Positions 1 through 38,579 of a DNA stretch of 38,579 bases are shown here, piece by piece. Position 1 is the stretch's first letter. Each line of letters starts with the position of its first letter. Both the position numbers and the translations under genes were made by a program. The stretch covers positions 1 to 38,579 of the IMG/VR virus record IMGVR_UViG_3300046010_001358; one strand, given 5' to 3'. The DNA comes from a virus. The notes under the pieces were generated by a model. That model made no database searches. It worked only from the letters and a program-made list of their open reading frames with translations, and was not told the DNA's origin.

Positions 1-3000
1 GGAATGTCGCAGGAGTTCTTTGGAAACGAACTGAACTTCCTTGAAACCGGAATGGACACGGACAGCGGTTCTTACAGCCAGAATCTTGCTGAAAAAATTA
101 AATCCGATATTGCTGCTAGAAATCAATCACAGCAAGCTCAGCAGTCACAACAAGCGCAGCGGGCGCAGCAGGCGGCAGCTCCGCTTGAGCAGGCCGCCAT
201 CTCCAGCATGGACGCCGACTACCTCGCGGCGGTCGAGCGCGGCGACACAGCGACCGCGCAACGGATGGTTGACGAAGCGGCAAGAGCGGCTGGATATAAC
301 ATTGGCCCTCTTTACCATGGCGGAATCACTCGCATTGATGTTCCGCGTGGTGTTCGTGGCGTGGCTGCATCAGCAAGTTTCAATCGTGATATCGCACAAC
401 AATATGCAGATCAGATGCAGAAGGCGTATTCCGAAGGCAATGCGGTTCTGCCAGAAAGCGCACAGATCGTTGGCCCGACAGTTTCTCGGTGGTATGCAAA
501 GGGAGAAATTTTCGATCCACGCAATCAATCACATATTGAAAAGGCAGGTCTGAAAGACCGGGATCTTGCATTCACGTGGGAAGATTATGAAATTGGTTGG
601 GAAGGAGGCTTGTCTGATGTTGCGAGGGCAATTCGCAATGCTGGGTTTGCCGGATACTTGGAACGAGAAGATGCAACTGATGCTTTTGAAAATGTAAGTT
701 TTTTCAAGCCAGAAGCAATTAAGTCCGCCGACCCTGTCGCCCGCGACGAGGCTGGCAACGTCGTCCCGCTGTCGCGCCGGTTCGACATCACCAGACCCAA
801 GGTGTTTGAGCAGGCGGCGATGTTTGAGCAGGCTCCCGTCAGCCTTGGCTTCTACTCGGCGCTCGCCAAGGCGGTCGATGCCATCGACGCCAAGAGCATC
901 GCGCCGTCCGGTTGGAAGGAGCGGATCAAGGGGCTTGTAAACAAGGGCGAGGTCAAGCAGGACGAGGTGGACTGGAGCGGCCTGACGGACTGGCTCGACA
1001 TGCAGGATGGAAAGGTCACGAAGGAGGCGGTGGCCGAGTTCCTCAAGAACAACGGCGTTCGCGTGGAGCGTGTGCAGCTTGGGCAGGATGTGTCGCGCAT
1101 CAATTATGCAAGCCCATACGCCATTCCAGAGGTTCTTCGCTACGCGCAAGAAAATCAAGGAAACGCTCCAGAAGCACTGTTGCTTGCCATTGAAAATGAC
1201 GGCGATGTTTACCGCGCACTTGCTCGGAAATTTCCGGAATTGGTCGAGGATGAAGATTGGGCGCGAGTCGTTGTCAACGACGTTTTCCGTGGTGGTGAAA
1301 ATGTTCAGCAAGGCAAGTTCTCCAAGTACGCCCTCCCGGGCGGCAAGAACTACCGCGAAGTTTTGGTAACGCTGCCCACAAAGAACACAAAATACACATC
1401 GGAAAATGTTGCAATAGACGCCGAAGAAACCGCCATGCGCGGCAAGGCTGACAATGACTTGTTCTGGTTCGTTCGCACTCCTGACAATCTATTTCAAATC
1501 TCCAAGAGCCGTCACCCAACGGCGCAATCTGCTATCGATTATGTGATCCGAGAGAAAGAACCAACGTTTGATGCTGGCGCGTTCACGTCATCGCATTGGG
1601 ACCAGCCGAATGTTCTCGTCCACTTCCGTCTGAACGACCGCGTTGATGCGGACGGCAAGCGCGTGCTGTTCGTTGAAGAAGTGCAGAGCGATTGGGGACA
1701 GGCTGGAAGGAAGACCGGGTTTGCTCCTACTGCTGCTCGTAGGCAAGCAATTACTGACGAATATAACGCGTCGAAAGCTGCGCTTGATGCTGCCGTTCCC
1801 GGCAGCGCTGAGGCTGAAGCGGCATATGAGCGTTTTGAACGCAATGCGGAGGCGTACAACAACGAAATCAACGACGCTTCCATTCCACGCGCACCGTTTG
1901 TTGAAACCACTGATGGCTGGTTGAACCTCGGCCTCAAGCAGATCATGCTTGAAGCGATCAAGGGAAACTACGACCGCGTCGCGTTCGTAAACGGCAGGCA
2001 GAGTGCAGATCGGTATGACCTGAGCAAGCAGGTGCGCGAGATTTCGTGGACCGGATACGACTCGCGTGGCGCGGCCAAGTTGGTCACCATCACGCCGCTT
2101 CAGGGGAATCTCATTGAGATTCCGATTGATGATCGTGGCGTTGCTATTTCCACGGGCAGCCAGTTCGACGGCAAGCCGCTGGACGAGATTATCCCGAAAG
2201 AGATTGCCGACCAGGTCATGGCCGAGCGCAGCGGCGACATTAGCGGCGATGGCCTGAAGGTTGGCGGAAAGGGAATGATCGACTTCTACGACAAGATCGT
2301 GCCTGCGGCTGTCAACAAGCTGCTCAAGAAGTACGGCGGGGGGAAGCTTCGAACGGTTGAGATTGACCTAAGAACACCGGAAAGCGAAGCGTGGTATCGG
2401 GAACCGACTGCGGAAGAATTGCCAGCGCAGCCCGGATTCCCCGTCACGCCCGAGATGGTCAAGAAACTGGAGTCCGGTCTACCGTTGTTCCAGGCTATGC
2501 CATCTCCCGGCCCAGCCCGAGGTGGATATGACCCTGCGCGGCTGAAGATTCTGTTTGGTCCGGGCGCTGACTTTACGACCGGAGCGCACGAACTCACGCA
2601 TTTCTACGTCGATTACTACACCAGGCAGGCGATGGCCGGCACGGCTACGCCGCAGATGCTTGCGGATTTGGATGCCATGTTCAAGTTCATGGGCGTTGCT
2701 GGAGATACGCCAGAGGCACGAATGGCGGCGTTCAACGCAATGCCGTTTGAAACCTCTAGGCCGTTGATTGAAACGATCACCTACAACGCGGAGATCTATC
2801 TGTTTGAGGGCAAGGCTCCGAGTCTTGAACTGGCCGGCGTGTTTGACCGCATGCTTGCGTTCTTCCGCAGGGCGTATAAGAGCATTGCCGACTTCATCAC
2901 GCAGCAGCAGGCCATCTACCGCCGAGAGTTTGGCCGCGAACTTCCTGTCCTAAATGACGAACTGCGGGCGGTCTTTGACCGGATGCTAGCAGACGAGCAG

Positions 3001-6000
3001 CAGATCAAGCAGGCCCAGGCCGTGGCACAAATGCGGGGCCAGTTCACCGTCAAGCCCGAGGGCATGGACGATGCTGAGTGGGCGGCATATCAGGAGATGG
3101 CTGGCGAAGCCACGAATGCGGCCATCGCGGATATGACCAAGGCCAGTCTGCGGCAGATGGAATGGCTGTCGCGGGCGCGTAGCCGGATCATCAAGGACAT
3201 GCAGGCGCGGCACACCGCCCAGCGCAAGGAAGTCCGAGAGCGTGTCCAGCGCGAGGTGCAGCAGGATCCTTTGTACCGGGCAATGGCGTTCCTGAAGCGG
3301 GCGCAAATCGTGGCCCCGGACGGTGCCACTACGAAGGCCGAGGGAGTACACAGGATTGACAAGGTGCTGGCGGCAGAGTTTGCCCCAACCGTAGACCTGG
3401 CGCGCCTTGGTGGTCGTTTTGGCGTCCTACAGGACGATGGGCTGCATCCTGATGTCGTGGCCGAGATGTTTGGCTATCCGTCTGGCGCAAGCCTCCTACA
3501 GGCTTTGGCTGACGCTAAACCGATGCGGGAGGTTGTGGAGGACCGGACTGACGCGGAGATGTTGCGCCTGTACGGGGAGATGAACACACCAGAGGCCCGT
3601 GAGCAGGAGATCCAAAAGGCGCTTCACAACGAGGCTAGGGCGCGGCTGGTGGGTGTTGAGTTGCGTTTTATGGGCAAGATTCGGCAGCCAGTACGGGTGC
3701 TGATGGAAGCCGCTCGCCAGGCAGCCCAACAGGTCATCGACCGCAAGCGCGTGGGAGAACTGCGTCCAAGCGAGTTCATCGCGGCAGAGGCCAAGGCATC
3801 CCGAGAGGCCACGGATGCGATGCAGGACAACAAGCCTGATATGGCGGTACGCGCCAAGCGGGCGCAGCTCCTGAACAACCAACTGGCAAAGACTGCGCTT
3901 GAGGTTCGCGACGAAATCGACGATGGAGTTCGGTATTTGCGCAGGGTGTTGCGTGATAGCAATCGCCAGCGTATGGGCGCGGACGTTGCAGACCAAATCG
4001 CCGGTCTGCTGGATCGGTTCAACATCGCGCCGATGACGGCAGATGAGGCCAACCGAGTCCGAACGCTATCAGAGTTCTTGGCATCGCTCGAGGATCGTGG
4101 CCTGGTCCCAGACATTGCCGAAGCCATAGGAATGCGTGACACGCGCATCCCGTACAAGAACATGAACATCGCGGACTTCCGCGATCTTGTCGATGCAATC
4201 AAACAACTTGAATACATTGGAAAGAACGAACGCAAGATTCTGTTGGCAAAGGAAAAAACAGAGTTTCAGGCGGTTCGGGATGAGATCGTAAAGAGCGTTG
4301 TAGCTAACGCTGGCGACCGCAAGGCCAACGCCAGAACGGCGACTACCAACATCGGCAGGGCCGTCACGGCCATGAAGGGATTCGCGGCGGCGCACCTGAA
4401 GGCCGCATCAATTGTCCGCATCATGGATGGTGGTAAGGATGGCGGGCCGTTGTGGAACTATCTGATCCGGTCTGCAAACAAAGCCGGAGATACAGAAACC
4501 ACCATGAGGGCAGAAGCAACCGCTGACCTGACCAAGATCCTTGAACCAGTATTCCGCGCTGGCAAGCTAGGTGGAAAGGGCATTTTCTTCCCGACGATCA
4601 ACCGAGCAATGAATCGCGAGGCACGCCTAGTTGTGGCCCTAAACATGGGCAACGCTGGCAACATGCAGCGCCTACTGGATGGCGAGGGTTGGAGCATTGA
4701 ATCCGTCCTTCCTGTTCTGCAATCGCTGACCGAGGACGAACTAAATACGGTCCAGCAGATTTGGGACTACTTTGAGAAGTACCGCCCAATGATTGGACAG
4801 AAGGAACGCCGCCTGTACGGCAAGGAGCCGGCATGGGTTGAGCCTCAGCCGCTTGTGGTTCAGTCTGCGGACGGAAAGACCGTCACGCTTCGTGGTGGCT
4901 ATTACCCGATCAAGTACGATCCTCGCGCATCACAACGGGCCGAAACGATGTCTGAGGCCGATGAGGCCAAGCGCGATTTGGCTGGTTCATACACAACCGC
5001 AACGACGCGACGCAGTTTCGTGAAATCGCGTGTTCGCAAGGTTGAAGATCAGCCGCTGCTGTACACACTGGCTGGCATGTATAGCGGAATCAATGATGTG
5101 ATCCACGATCTGACATGGCACGAGTGGCTGATCCAGGCGAACCGTCTGATGCGATCCAAGTCGTTCGATGAGGCTGTGCGAAACCGATACGGACCAGAAT
5201 ATGTGGCGCAGCTCAAGAACTGGATCAAGGATGTCGCTGCCGGCGAGCGTGGCGTGCAGAACGAAGCCGAGATGGCGCTGAACTTCCTGCGGCAGGGCAT
5301 TAGTTCTGCTGGCCTAGGTTTCAACATCGTGAGTGCGGCCATGCAGATCACTGGTTTCAACCAGTCCATTGTGCGCGTCGGCGCAAGGTGGATCGGTCGC
5401 GGCATTGCATATGTCGCGCAGAATCCGATGATTGCAATGCGAGAGGTAAATGAGAAGTCAGAGTTTATGCGGAACAGAAGCCGCACCCAATTCCGAGAAC
5501 TAAATGAGATCCGGAACATGGTGCAAGGCCAAAGTGTCGCCATGCGCCGCGTGCAGATGGGCACCTACTTCCTGATGATGCGGATGCAGCGCATGGTCGA
5601 TGTACCGACGTGGCATGGTGCATACGAGAAGGCCATGTACGAAGGACGCGATGAGGAGACTGCTATTGCGCTTGCGGACCAGGCGGTTATTGACTCACAG
5701 GGCGGAGGCATGGTCAAGGATCTTGCTCGCGTTGAGCGTGGCGGTCCTGCGGTCAAGTTGTTCACGGTGTTTTATGGGTACATGAACACGGTCTACAACA
5801 TGGCTGCCGTGCAGACGATGACGAACAAGAACAAGGGCCGTTTGGCAGCCGATTACGTTATGTTGTTCGTGGTTCCAGTTGTTCTGTCCTACATGCTGAA
5901 GCAGGCGCTTATCCCACGAAAGGGAGGCGAGGACGAGGAGTGGGATATGAGCAAGATTGGACGAGAGCTTGCCGCAGAGCAGTTGTCTTACCTGATGGGA

Positions 6001-6303
6001 ACGATGGTCATTGCTCGTGAGTTTGGAGAGGTCGGAAAGATGATCTTTGGCGTCGAAGGACCGCGCATGGGCTATGGCGGTCCAGCCGGATTGAGAGCGG
6101 TCGGTGAGACATACCAGTTTGCAACACAGGCATCGCAGGGTGAATTTGATACCGCGTTCCGCAAGTCGGCAGTCAACATGATCGGCGCGTTTACTGGTCT
6201 TCCAAGCGCCCAGGTGAACCGCACGCTTGATGGCCTTGAGGCGCTGTATGAGGGTGAAACAAAGAATGTTCTGGCACCACTAACTGGAGCAAAGATTCGA
6301 TGA
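1..6303 (+). CDS. Giant polyvalent ejection protein, C-terminal 2100 residues (continues from 36351-38579)
   Basis: The frame is open from base 1 and continues in frame from the right edge, so the ATG at 4 is internal, being residue 745 of 2843. Counting from the true start: a Gln/Ala-rich linker lies at about 784-800. An ADP-ribosyltransferase-like domain at about 840-1010 has YHG with His849, a candidate catalytic Glu973 (ENVSFF) and the IKSADP tail typical of polyvalent proteins. A conserved block with HWDQPN and FVEEVQSDW sits at about 1275-1420. A zincin motif HELTH occupies 1606-1610. A long helical region follows. A C-terminal region resembling LPD38 lies around 2500-2720 (DSQGGGMVKDLA), with a hydrophobic helix at about 2695-2714. 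Such proteins are known to be packaged and ejected with the DNA; role in the infected cell is inferred. It is the last gene of the tail/internal-protein operon. Confidence 0.85.
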   Translation, partial: GMSQEFFGNELNFLETGMDTDSGSYSQNLAEKIKSDIAARNQSQQAQQSQQAQRAQQAAAPLEQAAISSMDADYLAAVERGDTATAQRMVDEAARAAGYNIGPLYHGGITRIDVPRGVRGVAASASFNRDIAQQYADQMQKAYSEGNAVLPESAQIVGPTVSRWYAKGEIFDPRNQSHIEKAGLKDRDLAFTWEDYEIGWEGGLSDVARAIRNAGFAGYLEREDATDAFENVSFFKPEAIKSADPVARDEAGNVVPLSRRFDITRPKVFEQAAMFEQAPVSLGFYSALAKAVDAIDAKSIAPSGWKERIKGLVNKGEVKQDEVDWSGLTDWLDMQDGKVTKEAVAEFLKNNGVRVERVQLGQDVSRINYASPYAIPEVLRYAQENQGNAPEALLLAIENDGDVYRALARKFPELVEDEDWARVVVNDVFRGGENVQQGKFSKYALPGGKNYREVLVTLPTKNTKYTSENVAIDAEETAMRGKADNDLFWFVRTPDNLFQISKSRHPTAQSAIDYVIREKEPTFDAGAFTSSHWDQPNVLVHFRLNDRVDADGKRVLFVEEVQSDWGQAGRKTGFAPTAARRQAITDEYNASKAALDAAVPGSAEAEAAYERFERNAEAYNNEINDASIPRAPFVETTDGWLNLGLKQIMLEAIKGNYDRVAFVNGRQSADRYDLSKQVREISWTGYDSRGAAKLVTITPLQGNLIEIPIDDRGVAISTGSQFDGKPLDEIIPKEIADQVMAERSGDISGDGLKVGGKGMIDFYDKIVPAAVNKLLKKYGGGKLRTVEIDLRTPESEAWYREPTAEELPAQPGFPVTPEMVKKLESGLPLFQAMPSPGPARGGYDPARLKILFGPGADFTTGAHELTHFYVDYYTRQAMAGTATPQMLADLDAMFKFMGVAGDTPEARMAAFNAMPFETSRPLIETITYNAEIYLFEGKAPSLELAGVFDRMLAFFRRAYKSIADFITQQQAIYRREFGRELPVLNDELRAVFDRMLADEQQIKQAQAVAQMRGQFTVKPEGMDDAEWAAYQEMAGEATNAAIADMTKASLRQMEWLSRARSRIIKDMQARHTAQRKEVRERVQREVQQDPLYRAMAFLKRAQIVAPDGATTKAEGVHRIDKVLAAEFAPTVDLARLGGRFGVLQDDGLHPDVVAEMFGYPSGASLLQALADAKPMREVVEDRTDAEMLRLYGEMNTPEAREQEIQKALHNEARARLVGVELRFMGKIRQPVRVLMEAARQAAQQVIDRKRVGELRPSEFIAAEAKASREATDAMQDNKPDMAVRAKRAQLLNNQLAKTALEVRDEIDDGVRYLRRVLRDSNRQRMGADVADQIAGLLDRFNIAPMTADEANRVRTLSEFLASLEDRGLVPDIAEAIGMRDTRIPYKNMNIADFRDLVDAIKQLEYIGKNERKILLAKEKTEFQAVRDEIVKSVVANAGDRKANARTATTNIGRAVTAMKGFAAAHLKAASIVRIMDGGKDGGPLWNYLIRSANKAGDTETTMRAEATADLTKILEPVFRAGKLGGKGIFFPTINRAMNREARLVVALNMGNAGNMQRLLDGEGWSIESVLPVLQSLTEDELNTVQQIWDYFEKYRPMIGQKERRLYGKEPAWVEPQPLVVQSADGKTVTLRGGYYPIKYDPRASQRAETMSEADEAKRDLAGSYTTATTRRSFVKSRVRKVEDQPLLYTLAGMYSGINDVIHDLTWHEWLIQANRLMRSKSFDEAVRNRYGPEYVAQLKNWIKDVAAGERGVQNEAEMALNFLRQGISSAGLGFNIVSAAMQITGFNQSIVRVGARWIGRGIAYVAQNPMIAMREVNEKSEFMRNRSRTQFRELNEIRNMVQGQSVAMRRVQMGTYFLMMRMQRMVDVPTWHGAYEKAMYEGRDEETAIALADQAVIDSQGGGMVKDLARVERGGPAVKLFTVFYGYMNTVYNMAAVQTMTNKNKGRLAADYVMLFVVPVVLSYMLKQALIPRKGGEDEEWDMSKIGRELAAEQLSYLMGTMVIAREFGEVGKMIFGVEGPRMGYGGPAGLRAVGETYQFATQASQGEFDTAFRKSAVNMIGAFTGLPSAQVNRTLDGLEALYEGETKNVLAPLTGAKIR

Positions 6304-6364: not shown

Positions 6365-8395
6365 TTGACAATTAGCAGCACAACGCGCATTGCCGGCCCG
6401 TTTGTTGGAACTGGATCTGCCAGCGTCTTTCCATTTACCTTCAAGGTATTCGCGGCGTCTGATCTGGACGTGATCCGCCTGAACAGTTCAACTGGCGTTG
6501 AAACAACGCTAGTGCTGACGACGGATTACACGGTCACACTGAACGGCAATCAAAACACGAATCCTGGCGGAAGCGTCACGCTGGTCGCTGGCGCACTCGC
6601 GAGCGGATTCACGCTGACGATTACTTCCGACATCGCGAACCTTCAGCCAACCGACCTGACGAACCAGGGTGGGTTCTACCCCGAGGTCATCACGGACTCG
6701 CTGGATCGGGCCACGATCCAGATCCAGCAGATGTCGGAGGACGTTGGGCGCAGCCTGAAGGGTCCGATTTCGGACGGCAACCTAAACATGGAGCTGCCGA
6801 CGGCGGCGGTCCGTGCTAGCAAATACTTGGTTTTCGATGCCAACGGGTTGCCGATTCCATCAGCAGGTAGCGGGACTGATAGTGCGCTCCGTACTGACTT
6901 GGCAAATACTGAAGTCACGACAGCAGGTGCCGGACTTGTCGGATTCCGAACTGCCGATGCAACATCGGTTGGACGGACGGTCTTGTCCAAGCTCCGCGAT
7001 GTCGTGAGCGTCAAGGACTTTGGAAATGATATTGCAACAGCAGTCAATGCTATTGGTGCAACAGTGGCTGAACTTGTTATTGATGCGCCTGTGACGGTGG
7101 CAGCAAATCTGACTATTCCAACCACGCTGTCTGTTCGTGTGATTCGCGGTGGTGGCATTACCATCAACAACGGAATTACTCTAACCGTCAATGGCTTGTT
7201 CGATGCGCCAATCGCATCTGTATTTACATTGGTTGGTACTGGATCAGTTGTATTTGGTACTAGCGCAATTGAAGCGGCGTTTCCACAATGGTGGGGCGCA
7301 ATTGGAGATGGAACAACAAATTGCACGACAAGTATTCAGGCCGCAATGGATGCGTATAAAGTGGTGCAGTTGATTCCTGGAACGTATGCCACCACGGCAG
7401 CGTTGCAATTCAAGGGCGATGGCATTCAGATCAACGGTTCTGGTATGGGCGGCGCAACAACCATTTCCAGATCGGGATCTGGAAGTGTGTTTGAGAACAG
7501 CGCCAAAGCAACCGTAACGCGACTGTTCTGCGGCATTGCCAACATGCGAATCATTTCCAGTGCTGCGGGGGCAAACGCTGTTGTTGATTGGCGCTCAATG
7601 CAGTTTGGACGTATTACTAATGTGTGGATCACTGGTCAAAGCACAGCTGGATGCTCATGCATTCGCATGGATGTGGCAACCTTTGGCGTTACCGAAGCCA
7701 CCTACAACATTGTGTCTGGTTGCTATTTCGGATTATGTGCGTACGGCATCTATATCGGTGATGGCGGCAATAGCAACCTAATCATCGGCAACCGAATGCA
7801 AACCAGTTTTGCGGGCGGATATGGAGTGTTTTTGGAAGGCACAACGGCTGGTGCAGTTTCAAACAACTCGATTATCTCAAACGGGTTTGAATATCCCGGA
7901 GCAATTAATACTGGAATTCTGGTGTCTCAAAATACCGATGGCACGTTGATTTCCGGAAATAGGTTTGAATCGTTGTCAAACGGCATTTCTGTCGGTGCAA
8001 CTAGCAACAAGAATGTCAACGCAGCCTTTTCGGCCAACTATTTCAGCGGTTGCACAAACAACATCAATCTGACCAGCACGCCAACCGCAAGTGGTAATAC
8101 GTATTCGATTCGCGCATCTGCATCCATTTCCGGCACGGGCGCAGTTGGCCCGCTTGTTTTCAATGATGTTCAGTTCAACATGGGCGGATCTAAAACCGCA
8201 ACTGGTACATACGCAGTGACGTTTGTTGATGGCAATTTGCCGTCAACTGGATATGTAATCAACGCAACAACTGATCAGCCAAACGTCGTGGTTTCTGCGA
8301 AGTCCGCATCTGGATTCACGTTGGAAACCAGGAACTCGTCATACGTGTTGACAGATGCAACACGTCTTGATGTTGTTGTAATGCACAATAGGTGA
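6365..8395 (+). CDS. Tail spike / tail fibre with beta-helix domain
   Basis: The 676-residue product is the likely receptor-binding tail spike. The first ~160 residues resemble T7-fibre-type N-terminal tail-attachment domains (FPFTFKVF, then TTDYTVTLNG). From about residue 308 the pattern FPQWWGAIGDG followed by SIQAAMDA is the entry of pectate-lyase-type right-handed beta-helices. The remainder is rich in the short G/N/S/I repeats of such helices. This fold in tail spikes binds or cleaves surface polysaccharide; I see no identifiable active site. The start is TTG at 6365 with AGGAG 8 bases upstream; no in-frame ATG lies close. From about 7000 the gene is visibly more AT-rich than its neighbours, suggesting that the receptor-binding part was exchanged separately. 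It is the first gene of the adsorption/lysis block. Confidence 0.85.
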   Translation: MTISSTTRIAGPFVGTGSASVFPFTFKVFAASDLDVIRLNSSTGVETTLVLTTDYTVTLNGNQNTNPGGSVTLVAGALASGFTLTITSDIANLQPTDLTNQGGFYPEVITDSLDRATIQIQQMSEDVGRSLKGPISDGNLNMELPTAAVRASKYLVFDANGLPIPSAGSGTDSALRTDLANTEVTTAGAGLVGFRTADATSVGRTVLSKLRDVVSVKDFGNDIATAVNAIGATVAELVIDAPVTVAANLTIPTTLSVRVIRGGGITINNGITLTVNGLFDAPIASVFTLVGTGSVVFGTSAIEAAFPQWWGAIGDGTTNCTTSIQAAMDAYKVVQLIPGTYATTAALQFKGDGIQINGSGMGGATTISRSGSGSVFENSAKATVTRLFCGIANMRIISSAAGANAVVDWRSMQFGRITNVWITGQSTAGCSCIRMDVATFGVTEATYNIVSGCYFGLCAYGIYIGDGGNSNLIIGNRMQTSFAGGYGVFLEGTTAGAVSNNSIISNGFEYPGAINTGILVSQNTDGTLISGNRFESLSNGISVGATSNKNVNAAFSANYFSGCTNNINLTSTPTASGNTYSIRASASISGTGAVGPLVFNDVQFNMGGSKTATGTYAVTFVDGNLPSTGYVINATTDQPNVVVSAKSASGFTLETRNSSYVLTDATRLDVVVMHNR

Positions 8396-8398
8396 TCC

Positions 8399-8623
8399 AT
8401 GACCTCCACCCACCACGAAGAACTGTTCCTCGCCATCGGCCGCCTAGAAGGCAAGGTTGATTCCCTGATTGCCATGCAGAGCCACCAGCAGGATCAGCTC
8501 AAGGAACATGACACACGCATCCGCTCGCTCGAGCATTCACGTGGCTACATGCTTGGAACCGCAGCCGCCATCGGCGCGAGCATGAGCCTTGTATCCAACT
8601 ACCTCATCCGCGCATTCACCTAA
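8399..8623 (+). CDS. Small coiled-coil membrane protein, holin-like (XhlA-type layout)
   Basis: 74 residues. The first ~48 are charged and helical with heptad-like spacing (EELFLAIGRLEGKVDSL), followed by one hydrophobic segment at about 50-70 (YMLGTAAAIGASMSLVSNYL) and a short tail. A soluble coiled coil followed by a C-terminal membrane anchor is the layout of XhlA-like haemolysin/holin accessory proteins. It begins three bases after the spike stop and lies next to other envelope-directed proteins, which fits a lysis role. A structural or membrane-anchoring role is the alternative. The family call rests on layout, not on a catalytic motif. Confidence 0.6.
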   Translation: MTSTHHEELFLAIGRLEGKVDSLIAMQSHQQDQLKEHDTRIRSLEHSRGYMLGTAAAIGASMSLVSNYLIRAFT

Positions 8624-8631
8624 GGAACCAC

Positions 8632-9798
8632 ATGCCTACCGACATCATCATCGCCACGGACAAGCCGAAGTATCAATCAAGCGGATTGGTTGCCGCAACA
8701 TCTGGATCGGCCTATACGGCGATTTCTCCGACAACCACGACGCCAACCACAAGCGGACAAAATTTCCTCGTCCCATCAAATCTTGGCGATAAGCCAAGCC
8801 TGTTTCGGGTGATGCCATTTTCAAGCGTGAATAATGCAACAGCCGTTGGAATGCGCGTGGTTGGCTGGACATCGGCGTCCGTGCCGGTTGAATACACGAA
8901 TTTGCTGACGTATAGCCAGGAGTTCGACAACGCGGCATGGCTCAAAACTAACCTTGCGGTTACTGGTGGTTCAATCAATGCCGTTACTGCGCCCGATGGC
9001 ACGCTCACCGCTGACAATGCGTTGGAAACGGGAGCAACCGTAAACCACTACATCGGACGAGATACCGGATCGCCAGGAACAGCCACGACGATTCGCACGT
9101 TCTCGGTGTTTGTGAAGGGTGGTCTCGGCCGCGACCATGTGTCGGTTTGTGCCGGCAATGGTTCTGGTGGGCCTTATTACACAATCACTGTCAATCTGAA
9201 CACCGGAGCGGTCACCCAGGCTGATCTTGTCAATACTGGTACCTGGTTCACCACCACGCCGAGCAATACCGTTACGAGTGTCGGAAACGGCTGGTATCGC
9301 ATCACGATCACGAGCCGTCTTACGCAGTATTACCTCATCAGCCCACAAAGCACGGCAACCCCGACAAGTGGATCGAATTGGGGTCTTGGGTCATATGCCA
9401 GCGATGTGACAAAGGGCGTTTCCCTGTGGGGCGCACAACTTGAGAATGGAAGCACCGTCTCTCCGTATGCGGCTACTACGACGGCGGCAGTTATTGCGGT
9501 CAACAATACGGTTCCACAGGTACAAATGTGGCTTCCGACGATCATTGGCGAGTTCGATCTTACGTACTCAACCGGGACAGTCCCAAATGCGACGACCGGC
9601 GGAAATAACTACTACTTGTTTTCTAGTGCGTCACAGGTTGGAATCAGCCCGGACGCCTCCATGTATCGACCGGCCGTATCTACAGCAACCAGAACAGAAC
9701 CAGCATCCGTCATGGTTGATCCGGTTGGCTCACAATTGATCCAGCTTCAATTCAAGGCAGACAGCGGAACAATGGGCGCATACTGGTACATGATCTAA
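8632..9798 (+). CDS. Virion protein with sugar-binding-type (jelly-roll) domain
   Basis: 388 residues. About 90 residues of N-terminal sequence are followed by a domain at about 88-285 with NLLTYSQEFDNAAW, FSVFVKGG and NGWYRITIT. This set of motifs is common in phage tail and head-fibre proteins and resembles concanavalin/CBM-like beta-sandwiches. The C-terminal ~100 residues look like another beta-rich module. There are no catalytic residues to point to, so a binding role on the virion surface is inferred. It starts 8 bases after the holin-like gene and ends in TAATG, sharing one base with the esterase gene. The two are probably translated together and may act on the same polysaccharide. Confidence 0.7.
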   Translation: MPTDIIIATDKPKYQSSGLVAATSGSAYTAISPTTTTPTTSGQNFLVPSNLGDKPSLFRVMPFSSVNNATAVGMRVVGWTSASVPVEYTNLLTYSQEFDNAAWLKTNLAVTGGSINAVTAPDGTLTADNALETGATVNHYIGRDTGSPGTATTIRTFSVFVKGGLGRDHVSVCAGNGSGGPYYTITVNLNTGAVTQADLVNTGTWFTTTPSNTVTSVGNGWYRITITSRLTQYYLISPQSTATPTSGSNWGLGSYASDVTKGVSLWGAQLENGSTVSPYAATTTAAVIAVNNTVPQVQMWLPTIIGEFDLTYSTGTVPNATTGGNNYYLFSSASQVGISPDASMYRPAVSTATRTEPASVMVDPVGSQLIQLQFKADSGTMGAYWYMI

Positions 9799-10853
9799 TG
9801 AGAAACAGACTGTCCAAAACTCCACGCAGGTTTCGCAGACCAGGAATAGAGGATTATTCAACTGGTAGTGTGACCTATTACGCGCCGAATCATGCAAACC
9901 TGACGGTCAGCGACTATTCAACGATCAGCATTCAGGATGCAACGCGGCTGCGGTTTTCCCGACCGATCACGGACGGCAATGGATTTCAGAATGCTGCCCC
10001 GGCGGCAAGGGCCAGTTTCGTCACGACATCGACGCGGCTGATCCTGACCGTTGAATACAACGGATTGGTTACTAGATCGGAAAATGCCGCAAATGTTCGT
10101 GACTTGTTCAGCGTTGGTTCCGTTACTAGTAATGGCACGGAGATTGGAACTTTTAGGTGGCCGAATCTGATGACCGATGTTGGTGTTGTCCAGGCGGTAT
10201 TTGCTCTGCCGAGCGGCAGCAAAACCGTGAGCATCGTTTGGCCGTATTGGATCGGAATGGATCTATTGCAGATCGGGCTAGACAAAGGTTCAACATTCAC
10301 GGCGGCGACTAGGCCAACAACGAAACTAGCTCTCTGCGGCGACTCAATCACGCAAGGGGCAACGGTTTCAAAGATTACCGCCGGATGGGGGTATCAACTC
10401 GCGCAGTTGAAGAACTGGCAGGTCATCAACTACGCCAATGGAGGCGCGGTTGCGAACGCGGCCCATGCAACCACGGCGCTGACTGGATCAGGAGCGAGCC
10501 GCGTGTTCTACATGATCGGATACAACAATTTCGTGGCGCAAACCGCAACGGCGACATTCCAGGCCGCCGTGGAGGGTTGGATCACGAATGCGCGAGCTGC
10601 ATTGCCATCGGCAGCAATCTACGTGGCCTCGCCCATTTACTCGCCAAACACGAACACGATCACGCTGGCACAGTATCGAACCGCAGTTCAGAATGCAGAA
10701 ACCGCGGTAGGTGATGCCAACACGTTCTACATCGATGGTCTGGCAATGATGACCAACAACAACAACAGACTGTACGAGGGTGCAAGTGGTGTTCACCCGA
10801 ACGATCTTGGTGCCGGTGAAATTGCCACATATCTATCAACGGCCATAACGTGA
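9798..10853 (+). CDS. SGNH/GDSL-type esterase, virion-associated
   Basis: 351 residues. An N-terminal beta-rich region (about 1-170) is followed by an SGNH hydrolase domain. Block I is CGDSITQG with nucleophile Ser183, block II is NYANGG around Gly215, block III is GYNN with Asn243, and block V is GVHPND with His333. The usual Asp three residues before that His is Ser330 here, so the triad may use another acid or work as a dyad. Phage SGNH proteins typically remove acetyl groups from capsular or O-antigen sugars; that substrate is inferred from the neighbouring spike and binding protein. The start shares one base with the upstream stop (TAATG). The stop overlaps the next GTG start. Confidence 0.8.
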   Translation: MRNRLSKTPRRFRRPGIEDYSTGSVTYYAPNHANLTVSDYSTISIQDATRLRFSRPITDGNGFQNAAPAARASFVTTSTRLILTVEYNGLVTRSENAANVRDLFSVGSVTSNGTEIGTFRWPNLMTDVGVVQAVFALPSGSKTVSIVWPYWIGMDLLQIGLDKGSTFTAATRPTTKLALCGDSITQGATVSKITAGWGYQLAQLKNWQVINYANGGAVANAAHATTALTGSGASRVFYMIGYNNFVAQTATATFQAAVEGWITNARAALPSAAIYVASPIYSPNTNTITLAQYRTAVQNAETAVGDANTFYIDGLAMMTNNNNRLYEGASGVHPNDLGAGEIATYLSTAIT

Positions 10854-11335
10854 GAATCCTGCTCGCGGTTTTGTTGCTCACCGCCTGCAACCCGGTTGCT
10901 CGCATCTCCGCAAACGCGACGGCGATCCGCAACGAGGCCGGCGCGCTCATCGACCACGGGAACGCCATCGGCGACCAGGTCGTGGTGCAGGGCGCGACCC
11001 GCATCGACGCGGCCGCTGCGGCCATCCACGGCGACATCCCGAACGTGCAGGCGGTCACGCCGGCGTGGCTATCCACCCTCCAGTGGTGGGGCATCGCGGT
11101 GGCGGTCGCTGGCGTGGCATTCGTCCTGTGGCAGTCTGGCATTGGCACGGCCGTCCGTATCGCCATAGGGTGGTTGCCTCGCCGAAAGGTGGCTATAGCC
11201 GACCTCGCCGCAAGTACACTAGACCCGTCTCGTCCCGAAGGGGACAGGGAACTCGTGGCTGCGCTCCGGGCGGACCCGGAAATTGATGCAGCATTTAAAC
11301 GCGCCAAAAGGCGCAAACAGAAAGGCACGGTATGA
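10850..11335 (+). CDS. Lipoprotein with a transmembrane segment, candidate spanin
   Basis: 161 residues starting at GTG in a GTGA overlap with the esterase stop. The N-terminus is a short lipoprotein signal with lipobox LLTAC and candidate lipid-carrying Cys13. An Ala-rich, probably helical stretch (about 20-72) precedes a strong membrane segment at about 77-97 (WWGIAVAVAGVAFVLW). A basic C-terminal tail follows, ending KRAKRRKQKG. One protein with both a lipid anchor and an inner-membrane helix matches the layout of unimolecular spanins such as T1 gp11, which fuse the two membranes at lysis. The connecting stretch is short and the cytoplasmic tail long for that class, so this is a candidate only. 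Confidence 0.55.
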   Translation: MRILLAVLLLTACNPVARISANATAIRNEAGALIDHGNAIGDQVVVQGATRIDAAAAAIHGDIPNVQAVTPAWLSTLQWWGIAVAVAGVAFVLWQSGIGTAVRIAIGWLPRRKVAIADLAASTLDPSRPEGDRELVAALRADPEIDAAFKRAKRRKQKGTV

Positions 11336-24284: not shown

Positions 24285-24734
24285 ATGATTCGTGATGCAA
24301 CAGAAGCGGACCATGATGCCATTGTGGTTATGTATCGCCAATTCATGGCGTTCACACCCTACGCGGACGTGCTAACGGCTACCGATGAAGAGATCAGCGC
24401 CACAATCCGGCACTTCATCGCGCACGCCAAGGTGTTCGTCGCAGACACCGACTGCACAATCTCCGGCCTGTTGGTCGCCGTGCTGTCGCCAGCCTGGTAC
24501 GCCCCAAGGCACACAATTGCAACGGAACTGGCATGGTGGGTGGCACCGGAACACCGCAAAGGAACGGCAGCAATCAGGCTCATTCAAGCATTTGAGCAAT
24601 GGGCGAAAGACAGTGGAGCCAGCATGATTAGCATGACAAATCTGCAAATCAATGATGGCGGTTCGGTTGAAAAAATGTTGCGCCGAATGGGCTACGCAAT
24701 GACGGAACAGGCGCACACGAAAGGACTTATCTAA
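24285..24734 (+). CDS. GNAT-family N-acetyltransferase
   Basis: 149 residues from ATG 24285. The acetyl-CoA site (motif A) is ELAWWVAPEHRKGTAAIRLI with HRKGTA at 90-95, after two beta strands (KVFVADTDCTISGLLVAVLS). The C-terminal helix and strand (VEKMLRRMGYAMTEQAHTKG) complete the fold. It would transfer an acetyl group to an amine, but the substrate cannot be read. GNAT genes occur at this place, between terminase and portal, in several podoviruses. Possible targets are host proteins, a virion protein or a toxin. It ends in TAATG, one base into the next gene. Confidence 0.8.
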   Translation: MIRDATEADHDAIVVMYRQFMAFTPYADVLTATDEEISATIRHFIAHAKVFVADTDCTISGLLVAVLSPAWYAPRHTIATELAWWVAPEHRKGTAAIRLIQAFEQWAKDSGASMISMTNLQINDGGSVEKMLRRMGYAMTEQAHTKGLI

Positions 24735-29190: not shown

Positions 29191-29709
29191 ATGATTCTTG
29201 ATCAGAACCTTCGCCTCGGTAATACCGGAGCGATCACTTCCGCCGCCACGTATATCACTGGTACCTCTGGTACCCCGGATGTCGTTGACCTTCAGAGCAA
29301 CACCGCTTACACCGCCACGGTGAGCGGCTCGCTCTACACGGTCGGCCAGGGCACCCAGAACCGAGACATCGGCGCTGGTAGTGACCTGTACGTCGTGTTT
29401 ACCGTTACGACCGCGCTCGCTGGCGGTACGAACGCGACGTTCCAGGTGATCGCCTCATCGTCCTCCACGCTTGCCTCTGGCAACATCGTGATCGGCGAGA
29501 CTGGCGTTATCACCACCGCGAACCTCGGCCTCGGTGCCCAGGTCGCTGTCCGCATCAACCCGCAGCAGATCGGTGCTGCTGGCCTCCGCTATCTCGGCGC
29601 ACAGGTTGTCACGACCGGCACGCACACTGCCGGTGTCATCAGTGCCGACATCGTCGAGGACATCCAGGATGGCCGCCGCATCTATGCGTCGGGCTTCACG
29701 GTGGCGTGA
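29191..29709 (+). CDS. Head cement (decoration) protein, Bbp16-like
   Basis: 172 residues from ATG 29191; an AAGGA is upstream. The beginning MILDQNLRLGNTGAITSAAT and the beta-rich body (SDLYVVFTVTTALAGG, TNATFQVIASSSSTL) agree with the cement proteins that follow the capsid gene in BPP-1-like phages (Bbp16). These decorate and stiffen the capsid. Ser/Thr/Gly-rich composition and absence of helices fit a jelly-roll. The 25-base gap after the capsid gene contains no terminator. Confidence 0.75.
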   Translation: MILDQNLRLGNTGAITSAATYITGTSGTPDVVDLQSNTAYTATVSGSLYTVGQGTQNRDIGAGSDLYVVFTVTTALAGGTNATFQVIASSSSTLASGNIVIGETGVITTANLGLGAQVAVRINPQQIGAAGLRYLGAQVVTTGTHTAGVISADIVEDIQDGRRIYASGFTVA

Positions 29710-34599: not shown

Positions 34600-36354
34600 A
34601 TGCCGACCGTACCTACATCGTTCGTACCGCAGGTTGCTCCGCAGAGCGGTGGTGACATCGGACAGTTCCAAGCACCACAGGTTGCGGTAACAGAGAACCT
34701 TGCCGCTCCTCAGCAGGTGCGGTTCGGTGCAGCCATGACGGGTGCTGGAAATCAAGTGTTCCGTCTTGGTAGTGCTATTCAGGACGGTATTGATGAGGCA
34801 CAGACCAAGGCCGCTGATATCGCATTCCTCCAGCAAGCCAATTCCATGCTGCGTGGCGAGCAGGGATATTTGCGAACTGTTGGCAAGGACGCTGAGTCGC
34901 GGTACGCATCGACAGCAGACGCATTGACGCAGGCTGGACAATCGACGCTAGACGGACTTCAGAACGATACACAGAAGTCGATGTTCAAGAATGTACTTGC
35001 ACGGAACATGATGACGTTCCAGGCGCAAGCACTCGACCACCGCGACAAGGAAGTGAAGGTCTTTGCGGCAAATGAATCTCGCGCTCGAGCGGATCAGTAC
35101 GCAGCTCTTGCGATTCAGGACTTTGAAAATCGCGGCGAACTGTTGAGTGGTTACGAGATCAATCGTGGCGTGGCCCTAAACGAACTAAAGCAGGCTGCAT
35201 CGCTGTCCGGCATTCCAGAGGGTTCGGCGCAGTTCACGGCAATCCAGCAGCAACTTGATACGCAACTGACGACAGGGGTGGTCAATCGACTGATGCTGGA
35301 CAACCGCTACGACGAGGCTTACAAGTGGGTCGATGCCCAGCGCAAAGCTGGTAATTTGGAGCGCAGGGCGGGTGACAGCCTGATGGCATCAATTGATGCA
35401 AACCGGGATCGCTTCATAATTGATGAATATGCAACGACCATCAAGGGATATGGGCGCGTTGGAAGCCCAAATGATGAGGCCAACGACCCGCAGGAGGCTC
35501 CAGGATCGCTCAGGGACGCTTTGGACATTGCTGACGGGATCAAAGACCCGGAGATCCGCAAGGGCGTCCAGGCGGCCCTGCGGACACAATACGGGCAGGA
35601 GGAGGCATTGGCTCGGCAGGAATACAACTTCCTGATCGACCGAACAGAGCAGTTCCTTGCCATGCCTGGCAATGACGTGAACAAGATTCCTCCTTCCGCC
35701 TGGGGCCGGCTAAAGCCGACCGATCAGGCGCGATTCCTAAAGTCCCAGCGCGAGGTAGACGAGCTTGGGGTCATGGAAGAATTGGCACGAAATCCTTCGG
35801 TACTGACTCGCGAGTACTTGGAAGAAAACCGTGGTCGTATGACGCGGCAGACCTACACCAAGTTGCTCGGAGACATGAACGCTCCAGACAAGGTGATCGC
35901 GGCCACGCTTGACGCAGATCAGGTTGAGGCCACGTTCTTGGCAAATGGAATGACCAGCTTGACGAACCCGCGAACGGACTCGGAGAAGAACGAATCGCTC
36001 ACGCTCCGCAACATGTTCAAGGCGCAGATTGATGACATGCAGAGTGCGATGAAGCGACCGCTGAATCGAACCGAGAAGCAGCGCGTACTGGATCAGGTCA
36101 TCCTGCAATACAACGAAAAGGGATACGAGCCTGATTGGGTATTTGACAACGAGATGCGACTTGGTGCCATGACCGCAGAGCAGCGCCAGACCGCTTACGT
36201 TATGGTGGGGAAAAATCGCGTTACGTTGTCGAGTGTTCCGCAATCGTTTGTGTCTAACGTGGCGTTGCCGGAGTTCCGCAAGGCGGGCGTCACAAATCCA
36301 ACCATGCAGCAGATCGCCGACTATTGGCTTCGAAAGGGCAGGCCGTCCGAATGA
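34600..36354 (+). CDS. Internal virion protein (T7 gp15-like)
   Basis: 584 residues from ATG 34600. Beyond a flexible 30-residue start the chain is almost wholly helical and charged (e.g. SALQDG/SAIQDGIDEAQTKA, AQALDHRDKEVKVFAANES, DEAYKWVDAQRKAGNLERRA). No signal, membrane segment or lysozyme motif is visible. In T7-type phages gp15 forms, with gp14 and gp16, the conduit ejected through the envelope. Gene order (nozzle, gp14-like, this, giant) supports this. The stop overlaps the giant gene's ATG (ATGA). Confidence 0.7.
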   Translation: MPTVPTSFVPQVAPQSGGDIGQFQAPQVAVTENLAAPQQVRFGAAMTGAGNQVFRLGSAIQDGIDEAQTKAADIAFLQQANSMLRGEQGYLRTVGKDAESRYASTADALTQAGQSTLDGLQNDTQKSMFKNVLARNMMTFQAQALDHRDKEVKVFAANESRARADQYAALAIQDFENRGELLSGYEINRGVALNELKQAASLSGIPEGSAQFTAIQQQLDTQLTTGVVNRLMLDNRYDEAYKWVDAQRKAGNLERRAGDSLMASIDANRDRFIIDEYATTIKGYGRVGSPNDEANDPQEAPGSLRDALDIADGIKDPEIRKGVQAALRTQYGQEEALARQEYNFLIDRTEQFLAMPGNDVNKIPPSAWGRLKPTDQARFLKSQREVDELGVMEELARNPSVLTREYLEENRGRMTRQTYTKLLGDMNAPDKVIAATLDADQVEATFLANGMTSLTNPRTDSEKNESLTLRNMFKAQIDDMQSAMKRPLNRTEKQRVLDQVILQYNEKGYEPDWVFDNEMRLGAMTAEQRQTAYVMVGKNRVTLSSVPQSFVSNVALPEFRKAGVTNPTMQQIADYWLRKGRPSE

Positions 36355-38579
36355 TTCCGTTTACGCCAGACGACCGTCGAGCGCAGTTCGCACCTTCGCA
36401 GAATGTTGGAGGTGCCGTTGACCGCGACGTGCTAGACATCATCGGCGCACAACCGCAGCAGACGATGGCAGCGCAAGTCGATTACGAAGTGCCAGACATC
36501 AAGCCAGTCGATCCGGATGTTGTGGCAATCGTAAACCAGAATCAGGGTCCGCTTATGGCGTCACTGATGGGCGCATCGCAGGTGAATCCGGATCAGGCGG
36601 CGGAAGCAAAGCGCATTGGTTCACAGATCGGTATCGGACAGGACATCGCTCTGCGGAACATGGATGACGTGCGGCAGCGCGCATTCATGGCCGATGTACA
36701 GCGCCGCGACATTGCGCGTGCGAACCCGGTGCTTGCGGGCTTCTTGACCGACAGAACATTTGCGAACGAGGCGAGTGACGATATTGGAACACTCGACCGT
36801 GTTGGTTCATTCTTTGCAGACATTGGCCGTGCAGCTGCTGGTAGGCCAATGGAATACACGGCTGGCGAATTGGTTCGCGGATACATGCGCGGCCAACTTG
36901 TCGCAGAGCGTGGAGAAATTGGTACGAGGGCAATCTTGGGGGAGGCAGAGGAAACAAACTTTGCTCGCGCCAAGCAAATTCAGGCCGAGATGCGTGACCT
37001 TGCCGGCGGTGGCATTCTCGCAGCAACTGCCGAAGTCGTAGCGCAAAATGTGGCTCAGGCGCGAGAGGTGGTCGGCGCTGGTTTGGTTGGCGGCGCAGCA
37101 GGATCGGTGATTCCAGGCATTGGCACAATGACTGGATTTGCTGGCGGTTTGGGAACTGGCATTGTTTTGACAACGGCAAAAATGGAAGCCGGAAACCTGT
37201 ACTTGGACCTTCAGGAACAGGGTATTAGCGATGACACGGCAGTTCCAATTGCTGTCGGCGCTGGCTTGCTGAACGGCGTGGTCGAAGCCGTTGGCATGAA
37301 GGTCGCCGCAGCTCCGTTTCGACAATTGGCAGTGCGCGTGATGCGCGAGCAAATTGCAGAAGCAATACAGAAGCCGACGATGCGCGCCGCGCTGGCGGCA
37401 GCCGGCAAGGCTTATGTTGTCCAGGTCGGATCAGAGGCGACAGAGGAAGGTTTGCAGGAAATTGTGAACATTGCCACCGAGGAACTTGCCAAGGGCATGG
37501 AGGGCATCGACAGCGAAACGACCATGCGCGATGCGGCCAAGCGCGTGCTGGATTCGTTTGTGCAGGGAGCAATGGGCGGGTCCATTCTTGGCGGTATCGG
37601 CCCAGGCGCGAACCTGTATGTCGATTTGCGGCGGGCTAACAAGGCCACGAAGCAGACGCGGTTCTTCGATGATCTTTCAAAGAACGCCACCGAGTCAAAG
37701 CTCAAGGCGCGAGATGCTGGAGCATACGAACGGTTTGTGGCAGCAACGGCTGACGGAACCGGCGCTGATACGGTGTTTGTTGATGGCGCAACCATTCGCG
37801 ACGTGCTTACGCAGGCCGGAGTGACTGACACGCAACTTGACGCCATCATTCCTGGCATGGCGCAGCAAGTGCGTCAGGCCGTCGAACTTGGCAACGACGT
37901 GACGCTGCCAACCTCGCAGTTTGCGGCGCGTTTGGCCGGCACGAAGTTGGGAGACGCACTAATGCCGCATATGCGCCTGTCGCCAGATGCGATGAGCGCA
38001 ATGGAGGCGCAACAGTTTGAGCAGAGCCGCGAGGCGTTGGTTGAGGAGGCTCGTGCCCTGCTTGATGCCAAGACCGAGGCAGAGAGTGCATTTGTTCAGG
38101 AAGCGGATCAAATCGCATCCAGCATGCGCGACAGATTGGTGGCTGCTGGTCGTGATCCTGCAATGGCTGAAGTTGAAGCACTTGTGCATCAGGCATTCGT
38201 GGTAACGCAGGCTGCACGTCGCGGGATGACGCCGTCCCAGTTTGAGGCCGAGAGCGGACTTCGCGAGATCGTTGGTGTTCGGGGTGAAAAAACAAACGTA
38301 CAAGCAGCGCAATCTGCGGTTAAAAACGCAGAACTACAAGCGCGCAGCAAGTTGTTTGGATGGTACGCACAGCGCGAACTAGCGAAGATTGCAGAATCCG
38401 AGGGAGTTGATCTATCAACTCTGACTAGAGATCAATACGCGCAGTACGCGATTGATAATGGTCTGGCTATTGATGACGATCACCTTCGCATGGCCGCTGT
38501 ACTCCGCAACGCCAAGACGATTGAAGAATATGCGTCCATGCGAAAGTCAATGCGTGCCGCAGCGAATCCAATGCAACAG
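36351..38579 (+). CDS. Giant polyvalent ejection protein, N-terminal 743 residues (continues at base 1)
   Basis: The ATG at 36351 overlaps the upstream stop (ATGA). The frame stays open to the last base, ends on a codon boundary, and continues at base 1 as Gly744-Met745, giving 2843 residues over 8532 bases (22% of the window). The N-terminal ~230 residues are charged and helical. Residues ~241-277 are Gly-rich and hydrophobic (GAGLVGGAAGSVIPGIGTM), a membrane-insertion candidate like those of T7 gp16, which crosses the inner membrane. A second hydrophobic stretch lies around 298-320 and another near 410-425. I see no transglycosylase motif in this part. The position in the operon is that of T7 gp16. 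Confidence 0.85.
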   Translation, partial: MIPFTPDDRRAQFAPSQNVGGAVDRDVLDIIGAQPQQTMAAQVDYEVPDIKPVDPDVVAIVNQNQGPLMASLMGASQVNPDQAAEAKRIGSQIGIGQDIALRNMDDVRQRAFMADVQRRDIARANPVLAGFLTDRTFANEASDDIGTLDRVGSFFADIGRAAAGRPMEYTAGELVRGYMRGQLVAERGEIGTRAILGEAEETNFARAKQIQAEMRDLAGGGILAATAEVVAQNVAQAREVVGAGLVGGAAGSVIPGIGTMTGFAGGLGTGIVLTTAKMEAGNLYLDLQEQGISDDTAVPIAVGAGLLNGVVEAVGMKVAAAPFRQLAVRVMREQIAEAIQKPTMRAALAAAGKAYVVQVGSEATEEGLQEIVNIATEELAKGMEGIDSETTMRDAAKRVLDSFVQGAMGGSILGGIGPGANLYVDLRRANKATKQTRFFDDLSKNATESKLKARDAGAYERFVAATADGTGADTVFVDGATIRDVLTQAGVTDTQLDAIIPGMAQQVRQAVELGNDVTLPTSQFAARLAGTKLGDALMPHMRLSPDAMSAMEAQQFEQSREALVEEARALLDAKTEAESAFVQEADQIASSMRDRLVAAGRDPAMAEVEALVHQAFVVTQAARRGMTPSQFEAESGLREIVGVRGEKTNVQAAQSAVKNAELQARSKLFGWYAQRELAKIAESEGVDLSTLTRDQYAQYAIDNGLAIDDDHLRMAAVLRNAKTIEEYASMRKSMRAAANPMQQ

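What the first reader, a model, noticed from the sequence alone, without database searches (positions are those of the whole stretch)
1..6303. 2843-residue ejected protein combining ART-like fold, conserved 'HWDQPN/EVQSDW' block, HExxH zincin and LPD38-like end
One protein that enters the host may carry at least two enzymatic activities: ADP-ribosylation (His849, candidate Glu973) and proteolysis (His1606-Glu1607-His1610). These would act on host targets before phage genes are expressed. The EVQSDW block is conserved among such proteins but has no known activity. This is the best candidate in the window for an undescribed function.
Basis: partly seen in the sequence, partly recalled or inferred. 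Interest (0 to 1): 0.8.

Follow-up and report, generated by a model that had tools for sequence, protein, structure and literature searches.

The report
Phage entry protein with swappable effectors
A virus of bacteria carries one giant protein, probably fired into the host with its DNA, whose conserved ends hold a middle section that near-identical viruses swap wholesale; one swapped part is an unnamed, widespread enzyme-like family with an acetyltransferase-like fold, while the part first read as a toxin-like enzyme has lost most of its active site.

Summary
The 2843-residue ORF is real but crosses the record's ends (36351-38579 joined to 1-6303). It sits where T7-like phages encode their ejected core protein, and belongs to the family of BPP-1 Bbp10 (PHROG 9880). 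Residues 1-643 and 1577-2843, including the HExxH zincin, are the conserved core. Residues 644-1576 form an exchangeable cassette: four sibling contigs that are 93-99% identical in nearly all structural genes differ in-frame exactly there, and in the tail spike. Alternative cassettes carry ART-PolyVal, PBECR5 nuclease or DUF7178 domains. The ART-like domain is a genuine but degenerate ART-PolyVal relative: His849 is kept, the strand-2 aromatic is Ser867, the GYDG aspartate is Ala960, and dN/dS is 0.54 against 0.06-0.14 elsewhere. ADP-ribosylation is therefore unlikely. The 'HWDQPN/EVQSDW' block is a large, highly conserved family that Pfam and NCBIfam do not cover. Its AlphaFold model has a GNAT-like fold (VIA Z up to 11.7; most listed matches are GNATs), with invariant Glu1303 and Tyr1506 at GNAT catalytic positions. 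Best reading: an exchangeable acyltransferase-like effector. The 'LPD38' end was not supported. Virion presence and activity are untested.

The parts
36351..38279 (+). residues 1-643: conserved N-terminal core (LPD22 at about residues 74-161; two hydrophobic segments, 240-258 and 298-316)
   Evidence: 97-98% DNA identity to four sibling contigs; Pfam LPD22 E 4e-13; PHROG 9880; hydropathy
38280..38579 (+). residues 644-743: first part of the exchangeable cassette (no Pfam or PHROG match)
   Evidence: DNA identity to the siblings stops at residue 644 in four contigs and at 641 in a fifth
1..171 (+). residues 744-800: cassette, Q-rich linker
   Evidence: continues in frame across the record ends; not shared with siblings
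202..807 (+). residues 811-1012: degenerate ART-PolyVal-like domain with conserved bookends (His849; Ser867 and Ala960 replace active-site residues)
   Evidence: AlphaFold model poor here
808..1083 (+). residues 1013-1104: helical lead-in of the EVQSDW module, ending in the predicted first GNAT strand (1097-1102)
   Evidence: 94-96% DNA identity islands shared with two sibling cassettes; model 2
1054..2499 (+). residues 1095-1576: GNAT-like 'HWDQPN/EVQSDW' domain (E1196, H1275, R1286, E1303-V-Q-S-D1307, W1383, Y1506)
   Evidence: models pLDDT 84.6 and 64.4; VIA Z 10.0 and 11.7 to the GNAT-like domain of MtICL2; conservation; no Pfam/NCBIfam family
1594..1695 (+). residues 1275-1308: HWDQPN ... 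EVQSDW motifs (strands beta3-beta4 of the GNAT-like core)
2500..3006 (+). residues 1577-1745: zincin-like metallopeptidase core, HELTH 1606-1610, invariant E1667 and E1674
   Evidence: 39-40 of 39-40 relatives; model pLDDT mostly 82-96
3007..6303 (+). residues 1746-2843: conserved C-terminal core with a hydrophobic segment at 2696-2714; stop codon 6301-6303
   Evidence: 98% DNA identity to siblings; PHROG 9880; no LPD38 match
34600..36354 (+). upstream neighbour, 584 aa, lysozyme/endolysin-like N terminus
   Evidence: PHROG 10475 E 3e-14
6365..8395 (+). downstream neighbour, tail spike; C-terminal half also swapped between siblings

Best explanation
This is the gp16-position ejected core protein of a BPP-1-like short-tailed phage, built as a delivery chassis with an exchangeable payload. 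The conserved ends (1-643, 1577-2843, including the zincin) carry packaging, delivery and probably self-processing functions. The middle (644-1576) is an effector cassette replaced as a unit by recombination between close relatives. In this phage the payload is a degenerate, probably inactive ART-PolyVal domain plus the EVQSDW module. The module is a divergent GNAT-like acyltransferase that probably uses a CoA-linked acyl donor to modify a host molecule early in infection, in the manner of the phiKMV-like GNAT Rac. Shown: the ORF, gene order, cassette boundaries, conservation, degenerate ART positions, and the fold model. Inferred: presence in the virion, proteolytic release by the zincin, acyltransferase chemistry, and a host target.
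For: Gene order portal-protease-MCP-tail tubulars-252 aa-lysozyme-like-giant protein-tail spike. PHROG 9880 / BPP-1 Bbp10 homology covers the two ends but skips P0001 1-837, i.e. most of the cassette. Siblings are 93-99% identical in nearly all structural genes and in both ends, with sharp breaks at residue 644 and at 1552-1577. Alternative cassettes carry ART-PolyVal, PBECR5 and DUF7178. The GNAT-like fold is found in two models: top match the MtICL2 C-terminal domain (Z 10.0, 123 aa, rmsd 2.9; Z 11.7, 133 aa, rmsd 3.0), followed by KacT, AtaT, TacT and NatD, with most rows GNATs. Invariant positions not used to fetch the sequences: E1196 124/124, R1286 131/131, W1383 132/132, Y1506 130/130. 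The core of the block is under purifying selection (dN/dS 0.12-0.14 in three comparisons), unlike the ART (0.54). Precedents: polyvalent proteins contain ARTs, zincins and GNATs (PMC5512222); Rac acetylates host RNAP alpha (PMC7824862).
Against: Foldseek alone gives no significant PDB match (best E 0.36 and 0.28), and profile search finds no PDB relative, so the GNAT link rests on structural alignment of predicted models. The canonical GNAT Q/RxxGxG/A loop is not present as such: the sequence after beta4 is SDWGQAGRKTG. The domain has large insertions. The catalytic roles of E1303 and Y1506 are inferred from secondary-structure position; no coordinates were available to superpose residues. No virion proteomics was found for this phage.
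Confidence: 0.6

Rival explanations
1. The EVQSDW domain has a GNAT-like fold but is not a CoA-dependent acetyltransferase: it uses another donor (for example aminoacyl-tRNA or an adenosyl donor, as other GNAT-fold enzymes do) or another chemistry, with its invariant H-R-E-Q-S-D-W-Y set as a new active site.
For: The invariant set is unusually dense for an ordinary GNAT, and the standard pyrophosphate loop motif is not met. The stand-alone bacterial versions keep the same set.
Against: The structural neighbours include acetyl-CoA-bound GNATs. Tyr in the FYD motif of alpha4 and Glu at the end of beta4 sit where GNAT acid and base residues lie.
Confidence: 0.25
2. One reading: one protein with two working host-directed enzymes, an ART (His849/Glu973) and a zincin protease acting on host proteins.
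For: ART homology and an invariant HExxH plus Glu.
Against: Two of the three conserved ART positions are replaced (Ser867, Ala960), Glu973 lies in a non-conserved column and the domain has dN/dS 0.54. The zincin belongs to the conserved core and not to the variable effector part, which fits self-processing better than a host target (processing proposed in PMC5512222).
Confidence: 0.12
3. The variable middle is a structural or assembly part (spacer or packaging signal), and its diversity is neutral phage mosaicism rather than effector exchange.
For: Mosaic exchange is common in phages. Two neighbouring loci, the tail spike and the genes after it, are also swapped.
Against: The swapped pieces are enzyme-like domains (ART-PolyVal, PBECR5 nuclease, the GNAT-like family). 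The EVQSDW core is under purifying selection and exists as stand-alone bacterial proteins.
Confidence: 0.12
4. Assembly artefact: the ORF across the record ends, or the cassette breakpoints, come from metagenome misassembly.
For: The record is classed linear with no terminal repeats, and the join lies in a region no close relative shares.
Against: Both halves are in frame, form one ORF in many independent contigs, and the breakpoints recur at the same place in at least four contigs.
Confidence: 0.04

Closest known systems
Polyvalent proteins (Iyer et al. 2017, PMC5512222)
   Same: Huge multidomain phage protein near virion genes that joins ART-like, zincin and GNAT-like domains; LPD22 present.
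   Different: The EVQSDW family is not in Pfam or NCBIfam. The paper describes two RimI-like GNAT families, one often beside the ART; whether one of them equals this block could not be tested. Swapping at one fixed site between near-identical phages was measured here.
Bordetella phage BPP-1 Bbp10 / PHROG 9880 family
   Same: Homologous N- and C-terminal cores including the zincin (48.6% identity over P0001 837-2089).
   Different: No match to Bbp10 over P0001 1-836 (most of the cassette).
T7 gp16-type ejected core protein
   Same: Gene position directly before the tail spike, giant size, hydrophobic segments.
   Different: No detected sequence homology; the lysozyme-like domain lies in the preceding gene; ejection not shown.
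ART-PolyVal (PF18760)
   Same: Homologous core and bookends; His849 kept.
   Different: Strand-2 aromatic and GYDG aspartate lost; own sequence does not reach the Pfam model.
GNAT acyltransferases (MtICL2 C-terminal domain, KacT, AtaT, TacT, NatD; phage Rac as a functional analogue)
   Same: Predicted fold, order of strands and helices, Glu at the end of beta4, Tyr in alpha4.
   Different: No sequence match to any PDB GNAT, non-canonical CoA loop, a helical-hairpin and a beta insertion, strongly invariant H/R/E/Q/S/D/W/Y set.

Membership tests
Polyvalent protein | two or more unrelated, mostly enzymatic domains in one polypeptide | tested here: met
   ART-PolyVal homologue, GNAT-like domain, HExxH zincin, LPD22
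Polyvalent protein | encoded among virion or packaging genes | tested here: met
Polyvalent protein | delivered into the host with the DNA | not testable with these tools
   needs virion proteomics and an injection assay
ART-PolyVal | sequence homology to the family | tested here: met
   profile of 48 relatives' cores finds 838-984 at E 1.5e-9 in a one-sequence search space; 40 of 50 aligned members hit PF18760; the window's own sequence does not
ART-PolyVal | H-Y-D active site (as given in PMC5512222) | tested here: not met
   H849 present; strand-2 aromatic replaced by Ser867; the conserved GYDG Asp replaced by Ala960. Which Asp is catalytic is inferred from conservation
GNAT superfamily | GNAT fold | tested here: met
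   predicted models only: VIA Z 10.0 (123 aa) and 11.7 (133 aa), list dominated by GNATs; Foldseek not significant
GNAT superfamily | Q/RxxGxG/A acyl-CoA loop after beta4 | tested here: not met
   SDWGQAGRKTG in the window; Q1310, G1312 and G1316 conserved but the spacing differs
GNAT superfamily | acyl-CoA binding and acyl transfer | not testable with these tools
   biochemistry needed
Zincin-like metallopeptidase | HExxH plus a downstream Glu ligand in the next conserved helix | tested here: met
   H1606, E1607, H1610 39/39; E1667 and E1674 40/40 in the downstream helix
Zincin-like metallopeptidase | zincin fold | tested here: inconclusive
   model is confident but the domain was not searched alone; no profile match in PDB
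LPD38 | Pfam LPD38 profile at the C terminus | tested here: not met
   no hit in P0001 at E up to 1 or in five relatives
T7 gp16-type ejection protein | position in the late operon before the tail spike | tested here: met
T7 gp16-type ejection protein | presence in the virion and ejection | not testable with these tools
   no proteomics held; in the BPP-1 head paper the two major bands were identified by mass spectrometry as Bbp17 and Bbp16 (PMC3863775)

The most novel reading that the evidence does not exclude
The EVQSDW module is a new enzyme family on a GNAT-like fold, with its own invariant active site. It is shared by stand-alone bacterial proteins and by phage entry proteins, and phages rotate it with nucleases and ART domains at one fixed payload site of an ejected protein, as polymorphic toxins rotate their tips.
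Probability: 0.45. Interest if true: 0.8.

Novelty: new variant of a known kind. Interest (0 to 1): 0.62.

Why it matters
Phages are thought to inject proteins that disarm or reprogramme the host before any phage gene is read, but few such payloads are known in short-tailed phages. A fixed slot that near-identical phages refill would be a natural catalogue of injected effectors. A widespread family with invariant residues and no annotation gives a concrete enzyme to test.

Tried and rejected
Megablast of 1-6303 against named phages: no match. A mixed MAFFT alignment of ART, block and zincin pieces misplaced the ART pieces onto the block, so the second structure job had few ART rows and the ART model is poor (pLDDT about 30-50); no fold claim is made for it. 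Foldseek alone against PDB gave nothing significant for either model. A profile of the block or of the zincin against PDB sequences gave no credible relative. Pfam and NCBIfam hits of single block members are scattered and weak and were treated as chance. Neighbours of the stand-alone bacterial versions were read in five loci and share no obvious common context beyond the two Thiodiazotropha loci. LPD38 was looked for and not found. No zincin row appeared in the VIA list of the long model because GNATs filled it; this says nothing about the zincin.
Full report
What is there. The window is a 38,579-base virus record without end repeats. The ORF at 1-6303 is open at its left end, and the ORF at 36324-38579 is open at its right end. 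Joined, they read in frame as 2843 residues from an ATG at 36351, which overlaps the stop of the upstream gene as ATGA. The motifs are where stated: His849, Glu973, HWDQPN at 1275, EVQSDW at 1303, and a single HExxH, HELTH, at 1606.

Surroundings. The genes before it are terminase, portal, a protease, major capsid, two tail tubular proteins, a 252-aa protein and a 584-aa protein with a lysozyme-like N terminus; the tail spike follows. This is the T7 order of internal core genes (the T7 comparison is from general knowledge), with the giant protein at the gp16 position. PHROG 9880 matches the N-terminal part and P0001 838-2087 but skips the 837 residues between. The best named relatives are BPP-1-like podophages, which also match only from P0001 837 onward. 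Ejection is inferred from position and from hydrophobic segments at 240-258, 298-316 and 2696-2714. It has not been shown.

A cassette. Four sibling contigs (G001-G004) match the window at 93-99% DNA identity over nearly all structural genes; the exceptions are small genes such as those at 24285, 26813 and 29191. They are 97-98% identical over residues 1-643 and 98-99% over 1577-2843. Identity stops at residue 644 in four contigs and at 641 in a fifth, 85% identical one. It resumes at residues 1552-1577. Between these points the siblings carry other sequence: a PBECR5 nuclease domain in one, a different ART in another, a block without the ART in a third. More distant relatives carry ART-PolyVal or DUF7178 there. 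Inside the cassette, short islands of high identity (residues 809-842, 985-1104, 1271-1310) mark where modules join. The tail-spike C-terminal half and the genes up to about 11335 are the other swapped region of the late half.

The ART. A profile built from relatives' cores, without the window, finds residues 838-984 at E about 1e-9 in a one-sequence search space, so the homology is real. Forty of 50 aligned members hit Pfam ART-PolyVal; the window's own domain does not. The family's published active site is H-Y-D (PMC5512222). In the alignment the His is kept in the window (40 of 46 sequences). The strand-2 aromatic (46 of 49) is Ser867. The Asp of GYDG (36 of 46) is Ala960. The column of Glu973 is T, D, I, E, V or K in relatives. 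Between the window and its nearest homologue the domain has dN/dS 0.54, against 0.06 for the N core, 0.08 for the zincin and 0.14 for the block core (only 9 synonymous and 16 non-synonymous changes). I read it as a decaying or repurposed ART. That GYDG holds the catalytic Asp is inferred from conservation.

The EVQSDW block. Scans found 76 viral loci and 112 genome loci (80 kept) encoding relatives, and a few named phages and Pseudomonas plasmids, where one is called an LPD23-domain protein. Protein sizes run from stand-alone genes of about 540-590 aa to giants above 3000 aa. Of 132 sequences less than 80% identical to each other, E1303, Q1305, S1306 and D1307 are invariant, but the scans used that motif, so this count is biased. 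Positions not used for fetching are as strict: E1196 124/124, R1286 131/131, W1383 132/132, Y1506 130/130. No Pfam or NCBIfam family covers the block.

Its fold. AlphaFold of 1173-1574 with 60 sequences gave pLDDT 84.6. VIA-align ranked the GNAT-like C-terminal domain of M. tuberculosis ICL2 first (Z 10.0, 123 residues, rmsd 2.9). KacT, AtaT, TacT, NatD and other GNATs follow and make up most of the 50 rows. A second model of residues 800-1745 supplied a first strand at 1097-1102 and raised the match to Z 11.7 over 133 residues. Foldseek alone was not significant. The order beta2 (YREVLVTL), beta3, beta4 (VLFVEEVQS), a helix with a long hairpin insertion, beta5, an inserted beta region, a helix with GMxxFYDK, and the last strands fits a GNAT. 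Glu1303 at the end of beta4 and Tyr1506 in that helix lie where GNATs keep their base and acid; this is by position only. The usual CoA loop motif is absent.

The zincin. H1606, E1607 and H1610 are invariant in 39 of 39 relatives, and E1667 and E1674 in 40 of 40, in the downstream helix of a confident model. It lies in the conserved core, not in the cassette. Iyer and colleagues proposed that such domains process the giant protein itself (PMC5512222). That fits better than a host target, but is not tested.

Most likely mechanism. The ends package and deliver the protein; the zincin probably cuts it; the cassette is the payload; the GNAT-like module modifies a host molecule early, as the phiKMV-like GNAT Rac acetylates host RNA polymerase (PMC7824862). 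Virion presence, cleavage, activity and target are all inferred.

Novelty. Polyvalent proteins, their ARTs, zincins and two GNAT families are known (PMC5512222). What I did not find described is this unannotated family with its GNAT-like fold, and the measured swap of the whole cassette between near-identical phages. The paper library is partial, and I could not test whether the block equals one of the GNAT families in that paper.

Noticed in passing
window 7021-11335: Tail-spike C-terminal half and the genes for 388-, 351- and 161-aa proteins are replaced in sibling phages whose structural genes are 93-99% identical; with the cassette this is the other large swapped region of the late half.
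   Followed up: partly
L242:6972-8630, L237:6885-8648, L231:7089-8741, L240:7251-8906, L236:6978-8633: Stand-alone proteins of about 550-590 aa with the EVQSDW module in bacterial contigs (Thiodiazotropha, other Gammaproteobacteria, Magnetovibrio), with no Pfam name apart from a weak DUF2188 hit in one; compact versions suited to biochemistry.
   Followed up: partly
window 202-321 and 721-786: Near-invariant bookends (DADYLAAVERGDMETAQRMVDEAA and IKSADPVTYDxxGNVIPLSxRF) surround highly divergent ART cores in many phages, even where the His is an Arg; some loci share only the first bookend.
   Followed up: partly
L149:4777-8262, L133:4828-8265, L106:5410-8760: DUF7178, a domain of unknown function, occupies the same cassette in other members, so it may also be an injected effector.
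   Followed up: no
L072:5614-8661: A phage-contig protein joins the EVQSDW module to a PcfJ-like domain.
   Followed up: no
plasmid NZ_CP115292.1:77722-78717: Large Pseudomonas aeruginosa plasmids encode the EVQSDW module in a protein annotated as LPD23 domain-containing.
   Followed up: no
window 29191-29709: A structural-region gene (PHROG 427) is only 79-84% identical to the siblings while most neighbours are 93-99%.
   Followed up: no
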